A program made the translations under genes and the position numbers. A stretch of DNA of 64,000 bases, from contig JAQOTA010000009.1 of NCBI GenBank assembly GCA_029532415.1, positions 62,001 to 126,000 on the forward strand, given 5' to 3'. This document shows, in pieces, positions 8,223-9,601 of the stretch (positions are counted from its first letter, which is position 1; each line of letters opens with the position of its first letter). The notes beneath the pieces were generated by a model. The model was not told the DNA's origin, did not search any database, and was given only the letters and a program-made list of their open reading frames with translations. Source of the stretch: Marasmius tenuissimus. Its lineage: Eukaryota > Basidiomycota > Agaricomycetes > Agaricales > Marasmiaceae.

Positions 8223-9601
8223 TTATGTGATAAGAAGGAAGAGGAGGATAACAAGAGGGGCAACGCGCTGTTGGGCTTCATCTGCAGCGCCATCGATATC
8301 GTCCTCCGTAAGCTCCTTGCCAGCGGCAACCTCGCTTCCTCTGGCCAGCATGAGGCGGAATACGGCATTTGGGTTGTTCAATTTCAAAGCGTGCTGCTCG
8401 ACGGGGGACAGTTTAGGTTCGTAAGAACACACAGTTGCACCAGGATCGGTCATGTAACGATCACGAAGCTGACCGGGGAGGCAGAGTTCCGTCATGAACT
8501 TGCGCACGGCAGGCGAGGCTCGGAGTTGAACGCGGTCTGCTTCTGCTGCAACAGCCTCAGACTGATTGAGCTTCGCCACGGCGCCACGCTCGAAATCGCC
8601 GTAAAGCTTGGCGAGAATGTCCCCGGCAGGCTTGGAATCTGTCATGATAGGAATGAGCGGAACCTTGACTGGGGACCACCCAAGCTTCGTAATGGTGCTC
8701 TCGGGAAATTTGGGAATCTCGCGAGGAGGAACGTAGAACGTGGAAATGGACGAAACCTTTTTCCTGACGTCCTCGCAGCTCGGAGATCGTCAACTCCTGC
8801 TTCAGCGAGGTAGACTGAGGAAGAAGTGGGCCGATGAAGTGGATGAGTTTGTGATCGTTCCCAAAAGACTTCTCCAGTTTATCGACAAGGAGATGGAAGG
8901 AACTATTCTGTAGAGACAACGCATCAATGACGACGCTCAAGATGCTTCTAGAGGATGAGCAAATTTCACTTACGTCGAACACCATGGCGGCTGCGCAAAC
9001 ACTACCAACTTGCCAGATGATGTTGTGAACCGTAGGATCCAAGGCCTTGTCTTGCAGGACGATGTAGGTGGCCTCTTGGGAGACGCACCCAGGAACGGCC
9101 GGATCGAAGCCTATCTCAGAAAAGAGGAAATCTTCGGCTGACACACCGGGCAGCATGGTGGCACGGTAGCCCTCAGCTCGCGCAATGGCAATGGCACGAT
9201 GAGAGGGAGATACAAAGACACCCGGATGGCCATAGAAGATCCCGAGGACATTTTTACCGGCTCGAGTGGCGTTGAGCATCACCTAACAATGTCAGATGTA
9301 GATGAGTTTGCATGATCAAATTTGGCAGAAAAAGGTGAAAAGGAATTGTGCTCACCTCGCACATCTGGACGTAGCTCTCGTAGCGATGCTTGTCTTTATC
9401 ATAGTAGACGGACAGGTCGCTGCATTCGCCCTTGCTACGCTCACGGATGAATGCCTCGGTGACAGGATCCGTACAAACGTAGAAGATCACGTCGGCGTTC
9501 TCAATGCAAGACACCGTCTCGAGAGTGATGTGCGCTACGGCAGCAATACCGGAGCCAGCAATTGTGAGGCTGCCTGACTTGTTGGTAATCGACTGAGACA
9601 T
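8223..9601 (-). CDS. Borosin precursor: peptide alpha-N-methyltransferase fused to its C-terminal core peptide (one frameshift)
   Basis: This gene matches the fungal borosin family of omphalotin-type precursors, in which a SAM-dependent methyltransferase iteratively N-methylates the backbone of a core peptide at its own C-terminus. Exon 1 (9356-9601) starts at MSQSITNKSGSLTIAGSG and holds the SAM-fold start. Exon 2 (8974-9282) holds IFYGHPGVFVSPSHRA and LPGVSAEDFLF. Introns are 73 and 66 nt, GT-AG, in phase. Arg73, Tyr77 and Tyr99 fall where I recall the OphMA catalytic Arg72, Tyr76 and Tyr98. Exon 3 (8223-8907) carries the helical clasp region (PKLSPVEQHALKLNNPNAVF) and ends in a hydrophobic stretch. 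Near 8770-8781 the frame slips by one base; allowing for that, the protein is about 412 aa, close to the family's usual length. An in-frame upstream ATG at 9652 is a possible alternative start. The identity is firm; whether the slip is genuine or a sequence error is open. Confidence 0.9.
8226..8264 (-). other. Candidate borosin core peptide region
   Basis: The last 13 residues of the borosin frame are VAPLVILLFLLIT, preceded by acidic and polar DEAQQR. Borosin cores are hydrophobic and C-terminal, as here. There is no polar follower after it: the stop TAA comes directly after Thr. Core boundaries and N-methylation sites cannot be read from the sequence. Confidence 0.7.

What the first reader, a model, noticed from the sequence alone, without database searches (positions are those of the whole stretch)
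8223..9601. A borosin-type self-methylating peptide precursor gene
The minus-strand gene has the full borosin layout: SAM methyltransferase fold with IFYGHPGVFVSPSHRA, conserved Arg/Tyr/Tyr positions, a helical clasp segment and a hydrophobic C-terminal tail, about 412 aa in three exons. Borosins are rare RiPP precursors in which the enzyme N-methylates its own C-terminus. The predicted tail differs from the omphalotin core as I recall it, so the product may be undescribed.
Basis: partly seen in the sequence, partly recalled or inferred. Interest (0 to 1): 0.92.

Follow-up and report, generated by a model that had tools for sequence, protein, structure and literature searches.

The report
Fungal borosin gene with broken frame
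A cacao-infecting mushroom carries one clear relative of the genes that make self-methylated peptides such as omphalotin, but as assembled its reading frame breaks between the enzyme half and the peptide half, so it looks like a recently disabled (or mis-assembled) member of a known family.

Summary
Window 9601-8223 (minus) holds a fungal fused-borosin homologue: the methyltransferase pieces match MroMA1 (E 7e-57 and 2e-26), and the clasp-and-tail half matches MroMA1 (E 4e-10) and folds onto borosin clasps. But the claimed ~412-aa, three-exon protein is not encoded as assembled. The spliced exons total 1240 nt, not a multiple of three. The frame changes in exon 3 between 8773 and 8744, so enzyme and tail lie in different frames. 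The public protein, P0001 (Marasmius tenuissimus PM082_022948, 301 aa), equals this out-of-frame reading and lacks clasp and core. Between two conserved motifs there are 28 nt where 77 of 89 motif-bearing relatives have exactly the 11-codon spacing. It is the only copy detected. Both halves still look coding, so the break is young, or an assembly error. Best reading: a recently inactivated fused borosin gene, sister to one of Mycena chlorophos. Its tail is unlike those of the 120 relatives listed. A known kind of gene; modest interest.

The parts
9356..9601 (-). Exon 1: start codon and N-terminal part of the SAM methyltransferase domain, with Tyr67, Arg73, Tyr77
   Evidence: PDB match MroMA1 E 2.3e-26, OphMA 7e-17; identical to the start of public protein P0001
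9283..9355 (-). Intron 1, 73 nt, donor GTGAGC
   Evidence: same junction in P0001
8974..9282 (-). Exon 2: rest of the methyltransferase core, YGHPGVFVSPSHRA motif, Tyr99
   Evidence: PDB match MroMA1 (open frame 8557-9282, E 7.4e-57); Pfam TP_methylase 30.1 bits, cut-off 27.8
8908..8973 (-). Intron 2, 66 nt, donor GTAAGT; open in the same frame, so six-frame searches read through it
   Evidence: spliced out in P0001
8773..8907 (-). Exon 3, first part, in the methyltransferase frame, ending with the conserved LR
8745..8772 (-). Stretch in which the reading frame changes: 28 nt between the LR codons and STFYVPP, where 77 of 89 motif-bearing relatives have the 11-codon spacing
8223..8744 (-). Exon 3, second part, in another frame: STFYVPP, helical clasp / borosin-binding-domain homologue, hydrophobic core tail (VAPLVILLFLLIT, 8264-8226) and stop

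Best explanation
The locus is the only detected fused-borosin gene (OphMA/MroMA1 family) of Marasmius aff. tenuissimus, and it has lost its continuous frame by a recent small length change in exon 3. In its ancestor, the N-terminal SAM methyltransferase of one subunit of an interlocked dimer would have N-methylated the backbone of its partner's hydrophobic C-terminal tail, which a peptidase would then release (inferred from the characterised relatives). As assembled, translation gives a 301-aa protein: about 230 residues of methyltransferase plus about 71 out-of-frame residues. It lacks the conserved STFYVPP stretch, the clasp and the core, so it has no substrate of its own and should make no peptide. 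Shown: the homology, exon structure, frame change, absence of a second detected copy, and coding character of both halves. Inferred: that the change is a real mutation rather than an assembly error, and that it abolishes the product.
For: Three separately searched pieces match borosins. The intact Armillaria gallica relative P0010 aligns over residues 5-395 in four pieces, all at this locus; the pieces on either side of the break meet at its residue 228. The exons sum to 1240 nt. The public protein P0001 is letter for letter the out-of-frame reading, but it is the same assembly: its contig is 171,559 bp, as is contig C50. The only homopolymer of four or more there is five A's; a one-base error in it would also need a two-residue contraction, not seen in the fungal relatives counted. 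None of 34 formal GT-AG introns of 40-120 nt inside exon 3 that would rejoin the frames has a GTRAG donor, which both real introns have. No annotated protein of about 103-329 aa carries the clasp half (247 candidates, none at E<=0.001). No macrocyclase or oxidase domain in the 58 window frames of 130 aa or more.
Against: Little else in the gene looks decayed: the methyltransferase part keeps 50 of 54 invariant columns and the clasp part 13 of 14. The clasp frame is open for 188 codons and has the gene's codon usage (0.19 against -0.31 and -0.29 in the other frames). One small length change in an otherwise clean gene is also what a local assembly error would look like. The good donor of intron 2 with a later acceptor would give an open frame to the end in at least ten ways (list cut at ten), though each would remove at least 136 nt of conserved exon 3. 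The sequencing method of this assembly was not seen (genome paper not held). No second assembly of the strain was available here.
Confidence: 0.6

Rival explanations
1. The break is an assembly or sequencing error. The living gene is intact, about 412 aa, and makes a backbone-N-methylated hydrophobic peptide with a core not seen in the relatives listed here.
For: Other features are intact. The tail has the hydrophobic character of the family: its longest strict A/V/I/L/M/F run is 9, in the upper range (6 of 50 relatives of 380 aa or more have 9 or more; three more of that length, P0089, P0094 and P0118, were left out of the count). A run of five A's lies in the interval.
Against: The interval of 28 nt is not explained by a one-base homopolymer error alone if the length kept by 77 of 89 relatives held here too. 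No S9-peptidase match on the contig, though the search is insensitive to split genes.
Confidence: 0.31
2. The break is bypassed in the living cell, by an unusual intron or by programmed translational frameshifting, so a borosin with its tail is still made.
For: 34 GT-AG pairs of 40-120 nt within exon 3, and at least ten later acceptors for the real intron-2 donor, would formally give an open frame to the end. Both halves look coding.
Against: 0 of the 34 have a GTRAG donor; the nearest later acceptor for intron 2 would cut out 136 nt of exon 3 that aligns with relatives. The depositors' own gene model uses the ordinary acceptor. No recoding signal of this kind is known to me in this family (recalled).
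Confidence: 0.04
3. The gene is being split: the upstream frame supplies a free methyltransferase and the downstream frame a separate clasp-core precursor, as in bacterial split borosins (SonM/SonA).
Confidence: 0.03
4. It is an ordinary tetrapyrrole (siroheme/cobalamin-type) methylase, not a borosin.
For: Pfam TP_methylase matches, and many public names say 'tetrapyrrole methylase'.
Against: NCBIfam tetrapyrrole models score far below cut-off (best 33.8 of 525; siroheme synthase 23.8 of 400), and the 25 listed PDB matches of the methyltransferase piece are borosin enzymes or SonM-type TP-methylase entries.
Confidence: 0.01

Closest known systems
MroMA1, Mycena rosella borosin methyltransferase (PDB 7twk)
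   Same: methyltransferase core, LR..STFYVPP junction, clasp, short hydrophobic C-terminal tail; Tyr67/Arg73/Tyr77/Tyr99 aligned
   Different: MroMA1 is one continuous 400-residue chain; here the frame breaks before STFYVPP, and the tail sequence is unrelated
OphMA, omphalotin precursor of Omphalotus olearius (P0086, PDB 5n0x and others)
   Same: domain order and four of the five Tyr/Arg residues (Y63, Y66, R72, Y76, Y98) mutated in solved OphMA entries: Y66, R72, Y76, Y98 (PDB titles)
   Different: 40% identity over the searched region; the position of OphMA Tyr63 is Ser here (also not Tyr in MroMA1 and Lentinula P0009); no WVIVVG-type core; broken frame
Mycena chlorophos protein A0ABQ0LX31 (P0002)
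   Same: nearest relative: sister in the tree, support 100/99, 76% identity over 221 columns; shares the Gly-to-Cys and a Tyr-to-Phe change at columns invariant in 14 of 14 others
   Different: its frame runs on through STFYIPP; the listed protein ends at residue 285, so its clasp and core are not seen
SonM/SonA split borosin of Shewanella oneidensis (PDB 7ltr and others)
   Same: related methyltransferase; downstream half weakly resembles the partner chain
   Different: separate intact genes; here one gene with a frame change

Membership tests
Fungal fused borosin (OphMA family, types I-III) | TP-methylase-type SAM methyltransferase domain related to OphMA/MroMA1 | tested here: met
Fungal fused borosin (OphMA family, types I-III) | active-site residues mutated in OphMA crystal entries (Y63, Y66, R72, Y76, Y98 by PDB titles) | tested here: met
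   4 of 5 kept (Tyr67, Arg73, Tyr77, Tyr99 here); the Y63 position is Ser, and also not Tyr in MroMA1 and P0009
Fungal fused borosin (OphMA family, types I-III) | helical clasp after the methyltransferase | tested here: met
   present in DNA and modelled fold, but in a different frame from the enzyme
Fungal fused borosin (OphMA family, types I-III) | hydrophobic C-terminal core fused in one open reading frame to the methyltransferase | tested here: not met
   tail present at 8226-8264, but spliced exons sum to 1240 nt and the frames differ
Fungal fused borosin (OphMA family, types I-III) | autocatalytic backbone N-methylation of the tail | not testable with these tools
   needs mass spectrometry
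Fungal fused borosin (OphMA family, types I-III) | prolyl-oligopeptidase gene nearby, as in the omphalotin cluster | tested here: inconclusive
   no Peptidase_S9 match on contig C50 (18 matches elsewhere) and no Peptidase_S9_N match genome-wide; the search works exon by exon and can miss split genes
Fungal fused borosin (OphMA family, types I-III) | assignment to type I, II or III | not tested
   the defining paper (Quijano 2019) was not looked up or read; the tail lacks the alternating acidic pattern that PMC11395268 gives for type III (passages)
Split borosin (type IV) | complete free methyltransferase, including the C-terminal STxYxPP region, plus a separate precursor gene | tested here: not met
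   upstream frame ends out of register before STFYVPP; that the region defines the type is my inference, as 7 of 20 relatives of that length lack the pattern
Tetrapyrrole methylase of cofactor synthesis | score above curated family cut-offs | tested here: not met
   best 33.8 of 525 bits

The most novel reading that the evidence does not exclude
A fungal fused borosin caught splitting into two polypeptides: the frame change leaves an upstream methyltransferase and a downstream clasp-plus-core precursor read from one transcript, by internal initiation or regulated frameshifting, which would be a fungal intermediate between fused and split borosins.
Probability: 0.03. Interest if true: 0.75.

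Novelty: new member of a known kind. Interest (0 to 1): 0.27.

Why it matters
It adds a Marasmius lineage, with a tail sequence not seen in the listed relatives, to a known family of peptide-making genes. It also shows that the public annotation of this locus hides the clasp and core behind a frame break. If the break is real, a cacao pathogen has recently lost its only detected borosin, which isolates already sequenced could confirm. If the break is an error, one more N-methylated peptide is predicted.

Tried and rejected
Tetrapyrrole-methylase reading: rejected on NCBIfam cut-offs. A second borosin in the genome: not found with P0001, Armillaria P0010, the clasp half, or the locus DNA; the only other hit was E 0.04 on C15. 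The other TP_methylase matches (C20, C3) were not followed; I take them for housekeeping enzymes from recall. A tailoring cluster: none of the 111 P450 matches lies on C50, but only 92 of 638 first-look candidates were scored, so a P450 there is not excluded by that call; none of 18 S9-peptidase matches lies on C50. All 58 stop-to-stop frames of 130 aa or more in the window were scanned with Pfam (E<=0.01, the borosin pieces E<=1), plus 5 of the 26 frames of 110 aa or more on the left flank: besides TP_methylase (and a sub-cut-off PUNUT match) they gave F-box-like, NACHT/NPHP3_N and AAA-type, actin, transposase (DDE_Tnp_4, DDE_Tnp_1, Transposase_21), retroelement domains, DUF6535, DUF6570, a sub-cut-off DUF4218 and a sub-cut-off Rpc31. 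No biosynthetic enzyme; genes of short exons would be missed. A rescuing intron: 34 formal candidates inside exon 3, none with a GTRAG donor, and at least ten later acceptors for intron 2 that would cost conserved sequence. An annotated protein for the clasp half: none at E<=0.001 among 247 candidates. Literature: searches 'borosin' (32 papers hold it, 30 listed), 'borosin' with 'frameshift' (0), 'borosin' with 'Marasmius' (1, unrelated passage), 'omphalotin' with 'F-box' (0), 'MroMA1' (0), 'omphalotin, methyltransferase, Marasmius' (1 listed, not opened), 'Marasmius tenuissimus' with 'genome' (7 papers, 6 listed), 'tenuissimus, thread blight, PacBio' (0). Only the open PMC library was searched, so no statement about print beyond it.

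Full report
What is there. The minus-strand gene at 9601-8223 has three exons, 9601-9356, 9282-8974 and 8907-8223, with GT-AG introns of 73 and 66 nt. The public protein P0001, Marasmius tenuissimus PM082_022948 (301 aa), is letter for letter the translation of these spliced exons up to the first stop. P0001 is not independent evidence: its contig of 171,559 bp has the length of contig C50, on which the window lies. The genome size held here (71,056,785) is close to the 71,059,514 given for isolate GHA37 in PMC11053350 (sections 7 and 11 and passages read), so the window very probably comes from that isolate. That paper treats GHA37 as Marasmius sp. 1, near M. tenuissimus; M. tenuissimus is a cause of thread blight of cacao (abstract of PMC8581569).

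Family. The methyltransferase open frame matches MroMA1 at E 7.4e-57 and OphMA at about 4e-38, exon 1 matches MroMA1 at 2.3e-26, and the second half of exon 3 matches MroMA1 residues 232-389 at 3.6e-10. One search found 322 homologues at E<=0.001 among 482 candidates, of which 120 were listed; the top ones with organism names are fungal. In a 41-row tree of chosen relatives the gene is sister to a Mycena chlorophos protein (support 100/99), inside a supported group of six rows with Lentinula edodes, Marasmius fiardii and two M. crinis-equi proteins (98/93). Of 54 columns invariant in 14 chosen relatives the methyltransferase part keeps 50. The four changes are I to V, D to E, G to C and Y to F; the M. 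chlorophos protein shares the G to C and Y to F changes. The clasp part keeps 13 of 14. Leave-one-out for the 14 gives 54 of 54 to 54 of 57 upstream, with one outlier at 54 of 72, so this gene is more diverged than most of them but not eroded. Tyr67, Arg73, Tyr77 and Tyr99 correspond to OphMA Y66, R72, Y76 and Y98, residues named as mutants in PDB titles; the numbering match is my count on the alignment. OphMA Y63, also named there, is Ser here.

The break. The exons sum to 1240 nt. The methyltransferase frame is open to about 8559 but loses homology after the LR at 8773; the clasp frame is open from 8789 to the stop at 8223. Between LR and STFYVPP lie 28 nt. Among the 120 listed relatives 89 carry a recognisable STFYVPP-type motif and 31 were not counted (P0001 among them); 77 of the 89 have a Leu or Phe exactly 13 residues before it, the spacing of LR plus 11 residues. 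The 12 others are two fungal proteins with one or two extra residues and ten proteins without an organism name. Codon use of the downstream half fits its own frame (0.19 against -0.31 and -0.29). A search of the genome with the intact Armillaria gallica protein gives four pieces at this one locus, covering residues 5-395 and meeting at residue 228 across the break. So this is one gene, broken once. No joined protein was printed or searched.

Real or artefact. For a real mutation: the interval differs from the conserved length by more than a one-base homopolymer slip would give, and none of 34 formal rescuing introns inside exon 3 has a GTRAG donor, which both real introns have. For an artefact: little else is changed, and the sequencing method is unknown to me. 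Against both, the good intron-2 donor with one of at least ten later acceptors would give an open frame to the end (list cut at ten), but the nearest would remove 136 nt that align with relatives. I put about 0.6 on a real inactivating change, 0.31 on error, and the rest on bypass, splitting or another family.

Surroundings. No second copy was detected. The gene lies between two diverged direct copies of an F-box-like region (7.06-7.31 kb and 11.58-11.84 kb, 75% identical; F-box-like Pfam match in the left copy only), beside a short diverged repeat at 9.71-10.17 kb. The window also holds NACHT-domain genes, transposases and reverse-transcriptase/integrase elements; among all 58 frames of 130 aa or more no other biosynthetic enzyme domain was found. 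No S9 peptidase match lies on the contig. No P450 match does either, but that search scored only 92 of 638 candidates.

Mechanism. [quoted passage not shown]). That is the inferred ancestral job. With the frame as assembled, the protein ends without STFYVPP, clasp or core, so none of these steps should follow.

Verdict. Known kind of gene, new lineage, probably recently dead; interest modest.

Noticed in passing
window 7058-7314 and 11582-11838 (+); L011 3511-4959: Two diverged direct copies (75%) of an F-box-like region flank the borosin gene; another F-box-like gene lies on the left flank, so the locus sits in a local F-box expansion.
   Followed up: partly
window 9714-10167: Short diverged repeat of about 220-230 nt spacing (82%, 76%, 89% for its parts) immediately upstream of the borosin start.
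   Followed up: no
window 58203-62291 and 56675-57328 (-); L010 3-1337 (-): Frames with reverse transcriptase (RVT_2), integrase and gag-pre-integrase domains, and a related element on the left flank.
   Followed up: no
window 29916-31319 and 52078-53793 (+): Two NACHT / NPHP3_N domain genes of similar layout in one window.
   Followed up: no
window 8995-8997 (-), Cys178: This gene and its Mycena chlorophos sister share a Gly-to-Cys change at a column invariant in 14 of 14 other borosins; its effect is unknown.
   Followed up: partly
window 36446-37393 (+): An actin-family open frame (E 1.8e-71) in the same transposon-rich window.
   Followed up: no
window 27539-28243 (+): A DUF6570 open frame (E 4.3e-31), function unknown.
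   Followed up: no
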